This document shows positions 30,436 through 38,366 of a stretch of 64,000 nt of DNA, piece by piece. Position numbers and translations under genes: made by a program. The stretch is from the NCBI GenBank assembly GCA_000756795.1, contig CCSI01000001.1, positions 558,001-622,000 on the forward strand, read 5' to 3'. This DNA comes from Qipengyuania vulgaris. GTDB lineage: Bacteria; Pseudomonadota; Alphaproteobacteria; Sphingomonadales; Sphingomonadaceae. The notes below the pieces were generated by a model, which was given only the letters and a program-made list of their open reading frames with translations, was not told the DNA's origin and made no database searches. Positions within the stretch are counted from its first letter, which is position 1, and the number at the start of each line of letters is the position of its first letter.

Positions 30436-30888
30436 TCAGGCCAGTTCGTCGAGCTGTTCTTTGGAGAGCGTTCCGGGGATAAGGTAAAGCGGGCAGGGCA
30501 GGAAGGACGCGCGCGCGGCGAAATGCGCCACCAGAGGGTCCTTCCCCCCGTCCTTCGATGTCCCCAGCACCAGCGCGGCGATTTCCCCGTGATCGTCGAG
30601 ATATTGGGTAATGACATCGGCGGGCGAACCGGGTTTCACGGTGATAACCGGCATTTTGCCCATCTCGCCAAAGATTGTTCCAGCTGCGCTGTTCGCCATC
30701 ACCTCTGCACGGTCGCGCGCTTCCTGTTCGATGGTGGCCTGCACGCCGCCAAAGGCATTGAAGGTCTGCTGCGGGACCAGCGCGAGGATATGCACCGAAC
30801 CGCCCGTCTTCATGGCGCGCAGCGAGGCGAAGCGCAGCGCGTGTTTCGCCTCCTCGGTTTCGTCCATCACGACGAGGTATATTCGCAT
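30436..30888 (-). CDS. Universal stress protein (UspA family)
   Basis: ATG at 30888 gives a 150-residue single Usp domain: [21 protein letters not shown], then [28 protein letters not shown] and [20 protein letters not shown]. The canonical ATP-binding G-x2-G-x9-G-S/T is only partly met ([12 protein letters not shown]), so nucleotide binding is uncertain. The long upstream-open frame is antisense to pdhC and is not coding. It is divergent from pdhC. Confidence 0.87.
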
Positions 30889-31018
30889 AGGTCCGGCCCT
30901 CTCCTGTGGGCACGGGTTACAAGCTAATTCGTATTCTGTGCAAGGACCTTGCGGCCCCGCGCCAAATTGGCCAAGGACCCACCCAAACAATTCCCAGCGA
31001 GGACGTAACGTAAAAAAC

Positions 31019-32308
31019 ATGCCCACGCCGATAAAGATGCCCGCCCTGTCGCCCACCATGGAAGAGGGCACGCTCGCCAAGTGGCTGGTGAAGCCGGGCG
31101 ACACCGTTTCCGCAGGCGACATCATGGCCGAAATCGAAACCGACAAGGCGACGATGGAATTCGAAGCAGTGGACGAAGGCACGATTGCCTCGATCATGGT
31201 CGATGAAGGCACCGAGGGCGTGAAGGTCGGCACGGTAATCGCCATGCTCGCCGAAGAGGGCGAGGATCTGGACGAAGCTGCCAAGGCGGCTCCGTCGGGC
31301 GGTGAAGCGAAGGCCGAAGAAGCGCGCGAGGAAAAGGTAGAGCAGGAAGAGAAGCGCACCGAAGCGCCTGCTCCGGCTCCCGCTCCCGCCGCTGCCAAGA
31401 GCGATGATGGCAACCGCATCAATGCTTCCCCGCTCGCTCGCCGTATTGCCGAGCAGAAGGGTCTCGACCTTTCGACCATCACCGGATCGGGCCCGAATGG
31501 CCGTATCGTGAAGGCCGATGTCGAGGATGCGAAGCCCAGTGCTGCTCCGGCGAAGGAAGCCGCCGCCGCTCCCGCACCCGCTCCGGCCAAGCCCGCCACC
31601 ATGGGCGGCGACCTCGATGCGCCTTTCGAAGCGCAGAAGCTCAACAATGTCCGCAAGGTCATCGCGCGCCGCCTGACCGAGGCGAAGCAGACCATCCCGC
31701 ACATCTACCTCACCGTGGATGTGCGCCTCGACGCGCTGCTCAAGCTGCGCAGCGAACTCAACAAGAGCCTCGAAGCGGATGGCATCAAGCTGTCGGTCAA
31801 CGACCTGCTCATCAAGGCGCAAGCCCGCGCGCTGCAGCGTGTGCCGCTGTGCAATGTCAGCTTCCAGGGCGACGAGCTTTACCAGTACACGCGCGAGGAT
31901 ATCTCGGTCGCCGTGGCCGCGCCTTCGGGCCTGATCACTCCGATCATTCGCGACGCGGGCCGCAAGGGCCTCGCGCAGATCAGCACCGAGATGAAGGAGC
32001 TTGCGGGCAAGGCTCGCGACGGCAAGCTGCAGCCGCATGAATTCCAGGGCGGCACCGCCTCGCTCTCCAACCTCGGCATGTTCGGCACCAAGCAGTTCGA
32101 CGCAGTGATCAATCCGCCGCAGGCGATGATCCTCGCCGTCGGCGCGGGCGAGCAGCGTCCTTACGTGATCGACGGCGCACTTGGCGTCGCCACCGTGATG
32201 AGCGCCACCGGCAGCTTCGACCACCGCGCGATCGACGGCGCAGACGGCGCGCAGTTCATGCAGGCCTTCCAGCAGCTGGTCGAGAACCCGATGGGACTGG
32301 TGGTTTGA
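31019..32308 (+). CDS. pdhC: Pyruvate dehydrogenase complex E2, dihydrolipoamide acetyltransferase
   Basis: E2 transfers acetyl groups from E1 to CoA. The 429-residue product has one lipoyl domain ([20 protein letters not shown], lipoyl Lys in [10 protein letters not shown]), an Ala/Pro/Glu linker, an E3/E1-binding domain ([17 protein letters not shown]) and the acyltransferase core with the catalytic His and Asp in [14 protein letters not shown]. The start is ATG 31019 after GAGGA. E1 genes are not in the window; lpdA lies downstream. The next gene starts 8 bases after the stop, with its ribosome site overlapping the stop. Confidence 0.95.
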
Positions 32309-32315
32309 GGTCAAA

Positions 32316-33128
32316 ATGGACCTGCGCCAGAGAATTCAGAAGCTGATCGACGAGGATGCAGATCTGACGGTCAGATCGCTCTCATTGAGGGCAGGCCTGT
32401 CTGACAGTGCGTTAACCAAGTATCTCAATGGTCAGACTAACTCTCTGACGGTGGAGAATCTCGAGAAGATTGCCGGCGTCTTGGAATGCACTGCGAGTGA
32501 ATTGCTCCACAAGGAAGCCGATGTGGGGGCGGCCAAGGTTTCGGACCAGTCTTCGGTTCCCGCTGCGAGACTACGGGAAGCCAGAGCTAATGCTGGATTC
32601 GACCATGCTAACGCCGCGGCAGAAGCGATGGGTGTCCCAGTCGCAACCTATTTGGCGCATGAAAATGGTAGCCGGGGGTTCCCCGCTGGACGCGCTCAGC
32701 AATACGCATCCTTCTTCGGTGTAGCGCCCGAATGGCTGTTGTACGGTACGAAGGAAGTTCGAGAACCCCTCATCCGCGTCACGGCCATGCCTGCCGACAC
32801 CAACCCCTATGGCGGGGTTTTCGGCGGGTGGCTGATGAGCCAGATGGCGCTTGGCGCGGGCTCGCTCGCGAGCCGCGAGGGGAAGGGCAAGGCGGTGGTC
32901 GTCTCTGCCACGGATTTCGCCTTCCCCGGCGCAATGCAGGTGGGCGACGAACTCTCGGTCTATTGCGAGATCGCGGCGAGGGGCAACACCTCGCTCACCA
33001 TCAATGCCGAAGCCATCGCCCGCGAACGCAATGGCGAGGCCGAAACCAAGGTAGCGCGGGGCACGTTCAAATTCGTACTGCTCGATGAGAACAATCGCCC
33101 CCGCGCGGTCGGCGAGCGGTGGGCATGA
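32316..33128 (+). CDS. Two helix-turn-helix domains fused to a YciA-like acyl-CoA thioesterase (hotdog) domain
   Basis: The 270-residue frame is open without break. Residues 1-65 form an XRE-like HTH (LTVRSLSLRAGLSDSALTKY, LEKIAGVLECTASELL). Residues 84-143 form a second domain as in phage-type repressors (LREARANAGFDHANAAAEAM, YLAHENGSRGFP, FGVAPEWLLYG), where an S24 peptidase normally follows. From residue 149 the protein is a hotdog: RVTAMPADTNPYGGVFGGWL and DFAFPGAMQVGDELSVYCEI. The YciA catalytic Asp position (MSQMD) reads MSQMA. The gene follows pdhC by 7 bases with GAGGT as ribosome site. Rows of the N-terminal half are about 45-63% GC against about 75% in the hotdog half. A regulator sensing acyl-CoA is an inference. 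Confidence 0.8.
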   Translation: MDLRQRIQKLIDEDADLTVRSLSLRAGLSDSALTKYLNGQTNSLTVENLEKIAGVLECTASELLHKEADVGAAKVSDQSSVPAARLREARANAGFDHANAAAEAMGVPVATYLAHENGSRGFPAGRAQQYASFFGVAPEWLLYGTKEVREPLIRVTAMPADTNPYGGVFGGWLMSQMALGAGSLASREGKGKAVVVSATDFAFPGAMQVGDELSVYCEIAARGNTSLTINAEAIARERNGEAETKVARGTFKFVLLDENNRPRAVGERWA

Positions 33129-33294: not shown

Positions 33295-34707
33295 ATGGCT
33301 ACCAATTACGACGTCATCGTTCTCGGCTCCGGACCCGGCGGCTATGTCGCGGCGATCCGCTGCGCGCAGCTGGGCCTGAAGACCGCCATCGTCGAACGCG
33401 AGCTGCTCGGCGGCATCTGTCTCAACTGGGGCTGCATCCCGACCAAGGCGCTCCTGCGCTCGGCAGAGATCCTGCACTATGCCCAGCATGCCAAGGACTA
33501 CGGCCTGAAGATCGCTGGCGAGATCGAGGCCGACCTCGAAGCGGTGGTGAAGCGCAGCCGCGGGGTGGCAAAGCAGCTCAACCAGGGCGTCACGCACCTG
33601 ATGAAGAAGAACAAGATCACGGTGCATATGGGCGAGGGCACGCTGACCGGCCCGACCAGCCTCACGGTGAAAGGTGAGAAGGGCGAAGAGAAGCTCACCG
33701 CCAAGCACGTGATCGTCGCCACTGGTGCGCGCGCTCGCGACCTGCCCTTCGCAAAGGCCGACGGCAAGCGCGTGTGGACCTATCGCCATGCGATGACCCC
33801 GCCCGAAATGCCGAAGAAGCTGCTCGTGATCGGCTCGGGCGCGATCGGGATCGAATTCGCCAGCTTCTACAACGACATGGGCTGCGACGTGACCGTGGTC
33901 GAAATGCTCGACCGGATCGTGCCGGTGGAAGACAAGGACGTCTCCGCCTTCCTCGAAAAGAGCCTGACCAAGCAGGGCATGACCATCATGACCGGCGCGG
34001 GTGTCGAGGACATCAAGGTCTCCGACAAGGGCGTGAAGGCCAAGATAAAGGCCAAGGACGGCAAGGTCTCCGAGACCGAATTCACCCACTGCATCACCGC
34101 CATCGGCATCGTTCCGAACACCGAGAACGTGGGCCTGGAAAAGCTGGTCGAGATGGACCGCGGCTTCATCCAGATCGACGACTATGGCCGCACCAAGTCC
34201 AAGGGCCTCTGGGCCATCGGCGACTGCACGCCGGGCCCCTGGCTGGCTCACAAGGCGAGCCACGAGGGCGTCACTACCGCCGAGGCCATCGCCAAGGAGC
34301 TGGGCAACAAGGATGTCCATCCGCATCCGCTCGACCGCGGCAACATTCCGGGCTGCACCTATTGCCATCCGCAAATCGCCAGCGTCGGCTTGACCGAGGC
34401 GAAGGCCAAGGAAGCGGGCTACAGCGTCAAGGCAGGCACATTCCCCTTCATCGGTAACGGCAAGGCCATTGCGCTGGGCGAGGCGGAAGGCTTCGTGAAG
34501 ACCGTGTTCGATGCGAAGACCGGCGAGCTGCTCGGCGCGCACATGGTTGGCGCCGAAGTGACCGAGATGATCCAGGGCTTCGTCGTCGGCAAGACGCTGG
34601 AGACGACCGAAGCGGAGCTGATGAACACCGTCTTCCCGCATCCGACGATCAGCGAAAGCATGCACGAGAGCGTACTTGCGAGCTACGGGCGCGCACTCCA
34701 TATTTGA
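33295..34707 (+). CDS. lpdA: Dihydrolipoyl dehydrogenase (E3)
   Basis: E3 reoxidises the dihydrolipoamide of E2 with FAD and NAD+. The 470-residue product has the FAD motif VIVLGSGPGGYVAAIRCAQL, the redox disulfide in GGICLNWGCIPTK, the NAD motif LLVIGSGAIGIEFASFY, the second FAD contact in GLWAIGDCT and the C-terminal His-Glu pair in FPHPTISESMHES. It is separated from the HTH-thioesterase gene by 166 bases in which I see no gene. Confidence 0.97.
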   Translation: MATNYDVIVLGSGPGGYVAAIRCAQLGLKTAIVERELLGGICLNWGCIPTKALLRSAEILHYAQHAKDYGLKIAGEIEADLEAVVKRSRGVAKQLNQGVTHLMKKNKITVHMGEGTLTGPTSLTVKGEKGEEKLTAKHVIVATGARARDLPFAKADGKRVWTYRHAMTPPEMPKKLLVIGSGAIGIEFASFYNDMGCDVTVVEMLDRIVPVEDKDVSAFLEKSLTKQGMTIMTGAGVEDIKVSDKGVKAKIKAKDGKVSETEFTHCITAIGIVPNTENVGLEKLVEMDRGFIQIDDYGRTKSKGLWAIGDCTPGPWLAHKASHEGVTTAEAIAKELGNKDVHPHPLDRGNIPGCTYCHPQIASVGLTEAKAKEAGYSVKAGTFPFIGNGKAIALGEAEGFVKTVFDAKTGELLGAHMVGAEVTEMIQGFVVGKTLETTEAELMNTVFPHPTISESMHESVLASYGRALHI

Positions 34708-37178: not shown

Positions 37179-38366
37179 ATGGCGGGACTTAATAAACTAA
37201 CCGACAAGCTGGTGAGCAGTTCGCGACTGGAGCCGGGATCATATCAGGATGGCGGCGGCCTCTTCTTGAAGGTCTCGCCGAAAGGCACGAGGAGCTGGGT
37301 TGTGAGGTTGCAGGGACCTGGCACTATCGTAGACGGAAAGACCGTCCGGAAGGACTTCGGGCTAGGTCCTTACCCTTCGGTATCGCTCCAACAGGCAAGA
37401 GAGAAAGCCGCCGAATATAGGGCGCTGGTTGCTGACGGCGTGAACCCGCGCCATGCGCGCAATCGGGCCTTAGAAGAACCGACCTTCGCTGATGCAGCCA
37501 AGTCGGTTTATGACGAAAACAAGGGGGAGTGGAAGAACGCCAAGCATCGGGCGCAATGGTGGTCCACACTCGAAACCTACGCCTTTCCAACCTTGGGGGC
37601 GATGAAGGTTAGCGCGATTGATACCGACCACGTTTACGAGGTCTTGCTGCCTATCTGGACTGCCAAGCCGGAAACGGCCCGCCGCCTTCGCCAGCGAATT
37701 GTGATGGTCCTCGATTGGTCTCATGCAAAACGCTATCGAGAGCAGCCATTGTATATAGCCGCAGTGAATAGGGCGCTTCCGAAGGTGAAGCGGAAGGTGC
37801 GACATCATCCGGCGATGCCCTATTCCGAAATCGCCGACTTCCTGCCCAAGTTGAGGGCAACGGAGACCATGGCGCGATTGGCTCTTGAAGCTGCGATATT
37901 GACCGCGACGCGCTCCAACGAAGTCCGCATGGCGGAATGGAAGGAACTGGACCTCGATAAGGGACTGTGGGCGATCCCTGCGTCACGAATGAAGGCGGGG
38001 CAGCCTCATGTGGTGCCTCTGTCGGCTCAGGCGGTGCGGGTGTTCAAGCGGGCAGTCGAACTGAAGACTATGGGGCAGCAATACGTTTTCGCAGGCGCGC
38101 GCCATGGCAAGCCACTGTCTGATATGGCTCTGGTCAAAGTCATGCGTGATTTCGAACTGGAGGCGGTCCCTCATGGGTTTCGCTCCAGCTTTCGCGATTG
38201 GGTGTCCGAGGAGACCGATTACGTGGGCGACCTAGCTGAGGCTGCCTTGGCTCACACAATCAAGAACAAGACCGATGCAGCATACCGTCGCGGCAAGTTG
38301 CTAGAGAAACGGCGGACCCTGATGCAAGAGTGGGCCGATTACTGCGAGGGCTTACCTGCCGATTGA
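37179..38366 (+). CDS. int: P4-type tyrosine integrase
   Basis: The 395-residue integrase has the N-terminal DUF4102 arm-binding domain (SYQDGGGLFLKVSPKG, RKDFGLGPYPSVSLQQAREK), a core-binding SAM-like domain, and the catalytic domain. Catalytic residues are Arg in LTATRSNEVRMAEW, Lys in SRMKAGQPHVVPLS, HxxR in VPHGFRSSFRDW, His in LAHTIKNKTDAAY and the Tyr of that segment. It should cut at the tRNA-derived att sites. The ATG at 37179 follows the arm-repeat by 12 bases, so the integrase could repress its own promoter. Confidence 0.95.
   Translation: MAGLNKLTDKLVSSSRLEPGSYQDGGGLFLKVSPKGTRSWVVRLQGPGTIVDGKTVRKDFGLGPYPSVSLQQAREKAAEYRALVADGVNPRHARNRALEEPTFADAAKSVYDENKGEWKNAKHRAQWWSTLETYAFPTLGAMKVSAIDTDHVYEVLLPIWTAKPETARRLRQRIVMVLDWSHAKRYREQPLYIAAVNRALPKVKRKVRHHPAMPYSEIADFLPKLRATETMARLALEAAILTATRSNEVRMAEWKELDLDKGLWAIPASRMKAGQPHVVPLSAQAVRVFKRAVELKTMGQQYVFAGARHGKPLSDMALVKVMRDFELEAVPHGFRSSFRDWVSEETDYVGDLAEAALAHTIKNKTDAAYRRGKLLEKRRTLMQEWADYCEGLPAD

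What the first reader, a model, noticed from the sequence alone, without database searches (positions are those of the whole stretch)
32316..33128. Two repressor-type HTH domains fused to an acyl-CoA thioesterase fold, inside the pyruvate dehydrogenase cluster
One uninterrupted frame joins an XRE-like HTH, a phage-repressor-like HTH that normally precedes an S24 peptidase, and a YciA-like hotdog. The catalytic Asp position of YciA (MSQMD) is Ala here. The gene is 7 bases behind pdhC and ahead of lpdA. The N-terminal half has lower GC (about 45-63% per 60-base row counted by hand) than the hotdog half (about 75%), which suggests a captured repressor. A regulator that reads acetyl- or acyl-CoA and tunes pyruvate oxidation is a plausible, untested reading.
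Basis: partly seen in the sequence, partly recalled or inferred. Interest (0 to 1): 0.8.

Follow-up and report, generated by a model that had tools for sequence, protein, structure and literature searches.

The report
DNA-binding heads fused to dead thioesterase
In this bacterium, part of a virus-type gene switch is fused to an enzyme-like protein that lacks its usual catalytic residue and sits in the operon for burning pyruvate; related bacteria carry similar fusions with different DNA-binding parts, so this looks like a recurring way to build a gene regulator.

Summary
One 270-aa frame (32316-33128) joins two Cro/CI-type HTH domains to a YciA-type hotdog, 7 nt behind pdhC and ahead of lpd. 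The Asp-to-Ala change is real but clade-wide: 214 of 231 distinct loci (window included) lack the Asp, and the hotdog is still strongly conserved. The nearest relatives carry no HTH there, so no assembly error joined two neighbours.

Eleven of 231 loci have an HTH in the slot between pdhC and the hotdog, and all 11 are fused in frame to the hotdog. In 162 loci the slot holds other small genes (63 clusters); I found none fused, and no cluster representative has a Pfam HTH. The heads differ (18-58% identity, one pair 84%); sister loci can carry heads of different groups. Parsimony gives 10 changes; counted by head groups alone, at least four captures. In the one pair testable, the head shows purifying selection (dN/dS 0.33).

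Best reading: recurrent capture of DNA-binding heads that makes FapR-like regulators (head plus non-catalytic CoA-binding hotdog). Control of pdh itself is not supported: the pdhC promoter resembles that of unfused relatives and the heads differ. DNA and CoA-ester binding are untested.

The parts
32316..32525 (+). HTH1, Cro/CI-type (HTH_3; residues 1-70), N-terminal head
   Evidence: Pfam HTH_3 14-63; helices 3-64 in the model, block pLDDT 64-76 up to residue 60; GC3 of the whole HTH half 59 against 83 in the hotdog
32553..32756 (+). HTH2, phage-repressor-like (HTH_19; residues 80-147)
   Evidence: Pfam HTH_19 84-145; 58% and 54% identical to the HTHs of the Sphingomicrobium fusions L080 and L084; viral relative L312 continues into Peptidase_S24
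32757..33128 (+). YciA/TE6-type hotdog (residues 148-270 and stop), catalytic Asp replaced by Ala178
30611..32308 (+). pdhC (dihydrolipoyl acetyltransferase); the native start is probably the ATG at 31019
   Evidence: Pfam 2-oxoacid_dh, lipoyl and E3-binding domains; [12 protein letters not shown] start
33295..34707 (+). lpd (dihydrolipoyl dehydrogenase)
   Evidence: Pfam Pyr_redox_2 and Pyr_redox_dim
30940..30952 (.). palindrome GCAAGGACCTTGC upstream of pdhC, possible native control element
   Evidence: core present in fused window and in 37 of 160 promoters of the survey; exact 13-mer twice in the genome, the other copy inside a coding frame

Best explanation
A phage-repressor-type DNA-binding segment of foreign, lower-GC make-up was inserted into the gene slot between pdhC and a hotdog gene and fused in frame to the hotdog. 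The hotdog is a YciA-type acyl-CoA-binding domain that lost the catalytic Asp earlier in this clade but stays under strong selection, so it probably binds a CoA ester or makes an oligomer without hydrolysing in the usual way. The fusion yields a FapR-like protein: DNA-binding heads carried by an oligomeric hotdog, made from the pdh operon. The same construction arose repeatedly with different heads. Shown: architecture, recurrence, the all-fused rule, foreign composition, purifying selection in one pair. Inferred: DNA binding, oligomer, ligand gating. The DNA targets are probably specific to each lineage, not the pdhC promoter.
For: (1) HTH-hotdog fusions behind pdhC in 11 of 231 distinct loci. 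(2) Each HTH found in the slot is fused (11 of 11); in 162 loci with other cargo (63 clusters) I found no fusion, and none of 63 cluster representatives has a Pfam HTH. Fisher 1e-17 by loci, 2e-12 for 10 events against 63 clusters, still 1e-6 if only 4 captures are counted. (3) Ten parsimony changes on a 231-tip tree; sisters L080 and L163 (support 97) carry heads of different groups. (4) L187/L190 head dN/dS 0.33 with no frame break; Fisher p 0.016-0.034. (5) No start codon in the 16 codons before the hotdog in L185 and L191, and L190 has ACG where L096 has ATG, so the hotdog there is best read as made through the fusion. (6) GC3 of HTH parts 49-63 against 78-95 for the hotdogs, 11 of 11. (7) Precedent: FapR, HTH plus non-catalytic hotdog (passages).
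Against: No DNA- or ligand-binding datum. The dN/dS test rests on one species pair, and on the tree an unfused locus (L219) falls in the same three-tip group as that pair. HTH2 is modelled poorly (block pLDDT 36-68). No new operator was seen in the pdhC promoter. The heads vary, so no shared regulon is expected. Soluble HTH tags may simply be tolerated better than membrane or secreted cargo. The window keeps one TTG before the hotdog, so an internal start is not excluded for it.
Confidence: 0.6

Rival explanations
1. Captured immunity repressor: the head is a non-inducible phage repressor; the hotdog oligomer replaces the S24 dimerisation part, and the pdh operon expresses it, giving immunity against related phages.
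For: One viral relative of HTH2 (L312) is an S24 repressor; heads differ even between sister loci, as in an arms race; pdhC promoter not remodelled.
Against: The viral scan gave only 2 contigs with relatives (60% and 43% identity); of 63 slot-cargo representatives 1 has a weak hit to a defence family; the strict choice of the hotdog as partner is not explained.
Confidence: 0.2
2. Neutral capture: foreign fragments land in the slot; those that keep the hotdog translated survive, and a small soluble HTH is a harmless tag.
For: The slot takes in many unrelated genes (63 clusters); the hotdog is what stays conserved; nearly all fusions are single-species in this sample.
Against: The split between fused HTHs and unfused other cargo; DUF559-type cargo, presumably soluble, was not found fused; dN/dS 0.33 in L187/L190; doubled heads in two loci (window, L159).
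Confidence: 0.17
3. Acyl-CoA-gated regulator of the pdh operon itself.
For: Operon position; FapR precedent; the window's promoter does differ from its relatives at some bases, one of them in the outer pair of the palindrome.
Against: Promoter close to that of unfused relatives; heads too diverse for one operator; 2 of the 55 genus genomes whose locus was fetched have a head.
Confidence: 0.1
4. Assembly or annotation artefact.
For: None found; the window genome is in 11 contigs and was not checked against reads.
Against: Recurrence in ten other genomes, at least eight of them 99-100% complete; the nearest relatives carry no separate HTH there.
Confidence: 0.02

Closest known systems
FapR (Firmicutes malonyl-CoA-responsive repressor)
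   Same: N-terminal HTH plus C-terminal hotdog without catalysis; CoA-ester control is possible
   Different: DeoR-like HTH and a hotdog subfamily of its own in FapR (PMC516016 passages), against Cro/CI-type heads on a YciA-type hotdog here; FapR is one family, here the heads differ by lineage and are joined in one operon slot
YciA / HI0827 acyl-CoA thioesterase (TE6)
   Same: Hotdog fold, 34-35% identity to 3bjk chains, shared FGGWLMSQM region
   Different: Catalytic Asp44 replaced by Ala, the Asp of GDIFGG replaced by Gly, and an N-terminal DNA-binding head
CI-like phage repressors with S24 peptidase
   Same: HTH2 type; L312 is a viral example
   Different: No S24 domain; the hotdog takes its place; two HTHs in tandem
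CBS-DRTGG-hotdog proteins of Firmicutes
   Same: Hotdog joined to a regulatory domain (PMC516016 passages)
   Different: CBS domains, not DNA-binding heads of this type

Membership tests
YciA / TE6 thioesterase | YciA-type hotdog fold and sequence | tested here: met
YciA / TE6 thioesterase | Catalytic Asp (D44 of HI0827) | tested here: not met
   Ala178; 214 of 231 loci lack Asp; D44 named as the key catalytic residue in PMC10560148 (passages)
YciA / TE6 thioesterase | Acyl-CoA hydrolysis, hexamer | not testable with these tools
   -
FapR | HTH plus hotdog in one chain | tested here: met
FapR | DeoR-like HTH | tested here: not met
   Pfam gives HTH_3, HTH_19 and HTH_31 (Cro/CI type) above cutoff and lists no DeoR model
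FapR | FapR subfamily hotdog | tested here: inconclusive
   Best matches are YciA; FapR does not appear among the rows shown
FapR | Non-catalytic, malonyl-CoA-controlled DNA binding | not testable with these tools
   Only the loss of the Asp was seen
CI/S24 phage repressor | Cro/CI-type HTH | tested here: met
   Pfam, PHROGs repressors
CI/S24 phage repressor | S24 peptidase domain | tested here: not met
   No S24 model among the Pfam hits of P0001; present in L312

The most novel reading that the evidence does not exclude
Sphingomonad pdh operons contain an assembly site for new transcription factors: a conserved, non-catalytic CoA-binding hotdog oligomer is armed again and again with swappable DNA-binding heads caught from phage and mobile genes, giving lineage-specific regulators gated by acetyl- or acyl-CoA. 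It would be a second way, independent of FapR, of turning a hotdog thioesterase into a gene switch.
Probability: 0.35. Interest if true: 0.88.

Novelty: new variant of a known kind. Interest (0 to 1): 0.72.

Why it matters
A 2013 paper (PMC3536700, passages seen) calls FapR so far the only well-characterised family to have recruited the hotdog fold for a non-enzymatic role. Here a hotdog of another subfamily, in a central-metabolism operon, has repeatedly received DNA-binding heads at one fixed place, with the stages (no head, other cargo, one head, two heads, different heads on sister hotdogs) preserved in living species. That makes the birth of a metabolite-responsive regulator by domain capture directly testable, and it raises the question of what a thioesterase without its Asp does in the some two hundred pdh loci seen here.

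Tried and rejected
Assembly artefact: rejected by recurrence. Two adjacent genes in relatives: rejected, the nearest relatives have no HTH there by the home-made model. Asp loss as a feature of the fusion: rejected, it is clade-wide. A new operator brought to the pdhC promoter: not seen (perfect inverted repeats of at least six-base arms only, 160 nt, 12 promoters printed of 173 found). The 13-mer of that promoter as a regulon mark: rejected, its only other exact copy in the genome lies inside a coding frame, frr by my reading of the translation. Slot as a defence island: 1 of 63 cluster representatives has a weak PADLOC hit, so not supported, though representatives and not all 176 ORFs were scanned. 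Fusions outside the family: 385 genomes of the class gave 18 with a match at 1e-36, and apart from the window the listed places begin at query position 57 or later, behind most of the HTH; a fusion with a very different head could be missed. FapR did not appear among the rows of the fold comparisons shown, nor by name in the 60 of 134 rows shown; this excludes nothing. Paper searches for a published HTH-hotdog fusion of this type or for the slot listed nothing that looked like it; only titles and abstract starts were seen (79 and 83 listed none). Papers opened, passages only: PMC10560148, PMC3536700, PMC516016.

Rows dropped and limits: of 310 loci, 4 (L032, L033, L035, L036) have no hotdog; 306 were collapsed to 231 by an identical 260-nt stretch of the hotdog; 5 of 231 lack pdhC in view. 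Of 60 genus genomes, 55 had their locus fetched; G037 had no match, G006, G039, G041 and G053 were not fetched. Of 71 genomes of the Sphingomicrobium-like genus, 61 loci were fetched. In the family search G233 was not fetched because its contig begins inside the hotdog, matches weaker than 5e-52 were not fetched, and the list of places was cut. Fused loci were named by hand before the cargo count. Some of the 63 clusters are probably out-of-frame ORFs of the same slot (for example that of L170), so 63 is an upper count. One slot locus (L061) had no ORF passing the filter. L250's HTH is weak (Pfam HTH_3 E 2e-4, just below cutoff; home-made model E 0.16). L076 begins inside its HTH, which only the home-made model sees (1e-8), not Pfam (as L079). 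Without these two the count is 9 of 9. A wider look for frames open at least 45 codons before the hotdog gave 13 loci beside the fusions; 11 have a separate ORF filling 87-101% of the gap, and L173 and L252 hold two cargo ORFs each, so these two are not excluded by that test. The tree is one FastTree run; its 10 changes count L096 and L190 apart (L219 intervenes) although their heads are 84% identical, and count the sisters L080 and L163 once although their heads differ. Head groups alone would allow as few as four captures.

Full report
WHAT IS THERE. The frame 32316-33128 encodes 270 residues: HTH1 (Pfam HTH_3), HTH2 (HTH_19) and a YciA-type hotdog. pdhC ends at 32308 and lpd starts at 33295. 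The predicted model folds HTH1 moderately (block pLDDT 64-76), HTH2 poorly (36-68) and the hotdog well (89-96 but for the last block); the hotdog matches HI0827, with its Asp44Ala mutant among the top rows. The nearest named relative by hotdog is Qipengyuania xiamenensis, 96%.

IS IT CHANCE OR ERROR? In the genus (60 genomes held) 59 have the hotdog at E at most 1e-10; only the window aligns from residue 1, the next longest from residue 119. Of 55 genus genomes whose locus was fetched, one more, G048 (same contig as the MAG L079), carries a head, of a different XRE type and cut by the contig end. The nearest relatives (L074, L077, L067, L005) have a plain hotdog and other cargo.

THE ASP. In an alignment of 231 distinct loci the Asp position is A in 175, G in 38, V in 1 and D in 17. 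D against non-D needs 2 changes on the tree. Twelve other columns also separate the two types, among them the Asp of GDIFGG. D-type loci are few because the searches were centred on the window's type. In five loci (L138, L139, L261, L274, L276) two hotdogs stand in tandem at the pdh locus; in L261 the first is of the D type, so a duplication may have preceded the loss. The Asp-less hotdog stays under strong purifying selection: dN/dS 0.03-0.18 in 26 pairs, the fused window gene 0.03-0.16 against eight relatives. [quoted passage not shown]

THE SLOT. Of 231 loci, 226 have pdhC in view: the gap to the hotdog is under 60 nt in 50, 60-179 in 4 and at least 180 in 172. Of the 172, 162 hold one or more separate ORFs (176 ORFs, 63 BLASTP clusters at 1e-4, some probably out of frame), 9 are fusions and 1 holds nothing that passes the filter. 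In 148 loci with one cargo ORF, 60 starts overlap the pdhC stop in the same way (offset -4), 49 stops end next to the hotdog start (offset +1), and 119 are tight on both sides. Pfam gives a family to few of the 63 representatives (DUF559, a hotdog, DUFs and weak hits) and no HTH.

THE FUSIONS. Eleven loci: window (L068), L080 S. nitratireducens, L084 S. astaxanthinifaciens, L159 (two HTHs), L163, L185, L096 (= L187), L190, L191, L250, L076. The ten with pdhC in view are open from just behind its stop (start offset -1 to +7) into the hotdog. Pfam HTH hits are above cutoff in nine; L250 is just below; L076, whose contig begins inside the HTH, is seen only by the home-made model. That model found no other HTH in a slot (next best E 1.8). 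Other loci have frames open upstream of the hotdog, as expected in GC-rich DNA: 13 with at least 45 codons, of which 11 have a separate ORF filling 87-101% of the gap; L173 and L252 hold two cargo ORFs each and are not excluded by that test. So: HTH 11 fused of 11; other cargo none found fused in 162 loci.

INDEPENDENCE. On a FastTree of hotdog plus pdhC C-terminus (231 tips) the state changes 10 times. This is one quick tree and does not tell gain from loss. Heads fall into groups: window HTH2, L080 and L084 (54-58%); L159a/b, L163, L185, L076, L191 (36-52%); L096 and L190 (84% to each other); L250 and window HTH1 apart. L080 and L163 are sisters (97) with heads of different groups, so heads are swapped or were won separately. 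Against a simple count: L096 and L190 surely share one head origin, yet the unfused L219 falls among them on the tree. The number of captures therefore lies between about four (head groups) and ten.

ORIGIN AND CONSTRAINT. HTH parts have GC3 49-63 where hotdogs have 78-95 and pdhC 86-97. The viral scan gave two contigs with relatives of HTH2; L312 has Peptidase_S24. L187 against L190: HTH dN/dS 0.33, hotdog 0.11, pdhC 0.10; Fisher p 0.016-0.034 for the HTH. L185 and L191 have no ATG, GTG or TTG in the 16 codons before the hotdog. The window has one TTG there, so an internal start cannot be excluded for it.

MECHANISM. HI0827 is a hexamer with CoA sites at dimer interfaces (PMC10560148 passages). 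A fused head would be displayed in several copies, as FapR displays its heads on a hotdog dimer and takes a form that cannot bind DNA when malonyl-CoA binds (PMC3536700 passages). I infer the same logic; nothing here shows it. The promoter of pdhC does not look like a new target: the window's 160 nt match unfused relatives in 150 of 161 (L067), 140 of 162 (L077) and 131 of 163 (L074) aligned columns, and the palindrome core is kept, though its outer pair is changed in the window. Autoregulation inside the operon, distant genes, or phage operators remain.

VERDICT. Real, recurrent, and unusual. What it works like, as inferred: FapR. What it is: not FapR by head; not an intact YciA by active site; not a CI repressor by its C-terminal part. 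A new variant of the HTH-plus-hotdog kind, with a mode of origin that I found in none of the paper searches made.

Noticed in passing
between pdhC and hotdog in 162 of 231 loci (window position 32309-32756): A gene slot in the pdh operon that carries unrelated small genes (176 ORFs, 63 clusters), often with short overlaps at both ends; by eye mostly membrane proteins and SH3-like lipoproteins, by model a DUF559 group.
   Followed up: partly
L062, L063, L064, L078 (G030, G027, G003, Q. nanhaisediminis): 5' remnants of the hotdog (18-42 codons) about 645 nt upstream of the full copy, with a lipoprotein-like gene between: traces of how cargo enters the slot.
   Followed up: partly
window 30940-30952: Palindrome GCAAGGACCTTGC upstream of pdhC; kept in 6 of the 7 unfused genus loci printed, the seventh with one changed base; in 37 of 160 promoters of the whole survey. 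Regulator unknown.
   Followed up: partly
L138, L139, L261, L274, L276: Two hotdogs in tandem at the pdh locus; in L261 the first is of the Asp type: possible duplication before loss of catalysis.
   Followed up: partly
38 of 231 loci, among them L171, L173, L185: A group with Gly at the Asp position (GQMGLACGSFASR), seen in the Sphingomicrobium-like genus g78.
   Followed up: no
window 37179-38366: Tyrosine integrase (Phage_int_M, Arm-DNA-bind_3, Phage_integrase) 4 kb downstream of the fusion: possible edge of an integrated element.
   Followed up: no
L084, L158: between hotdog and lpd: About 1.4 kb of extra DNA with open frames also on the other side of the hotdog; the hotdog-lpd gap varies between species too.
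   Followed up: no
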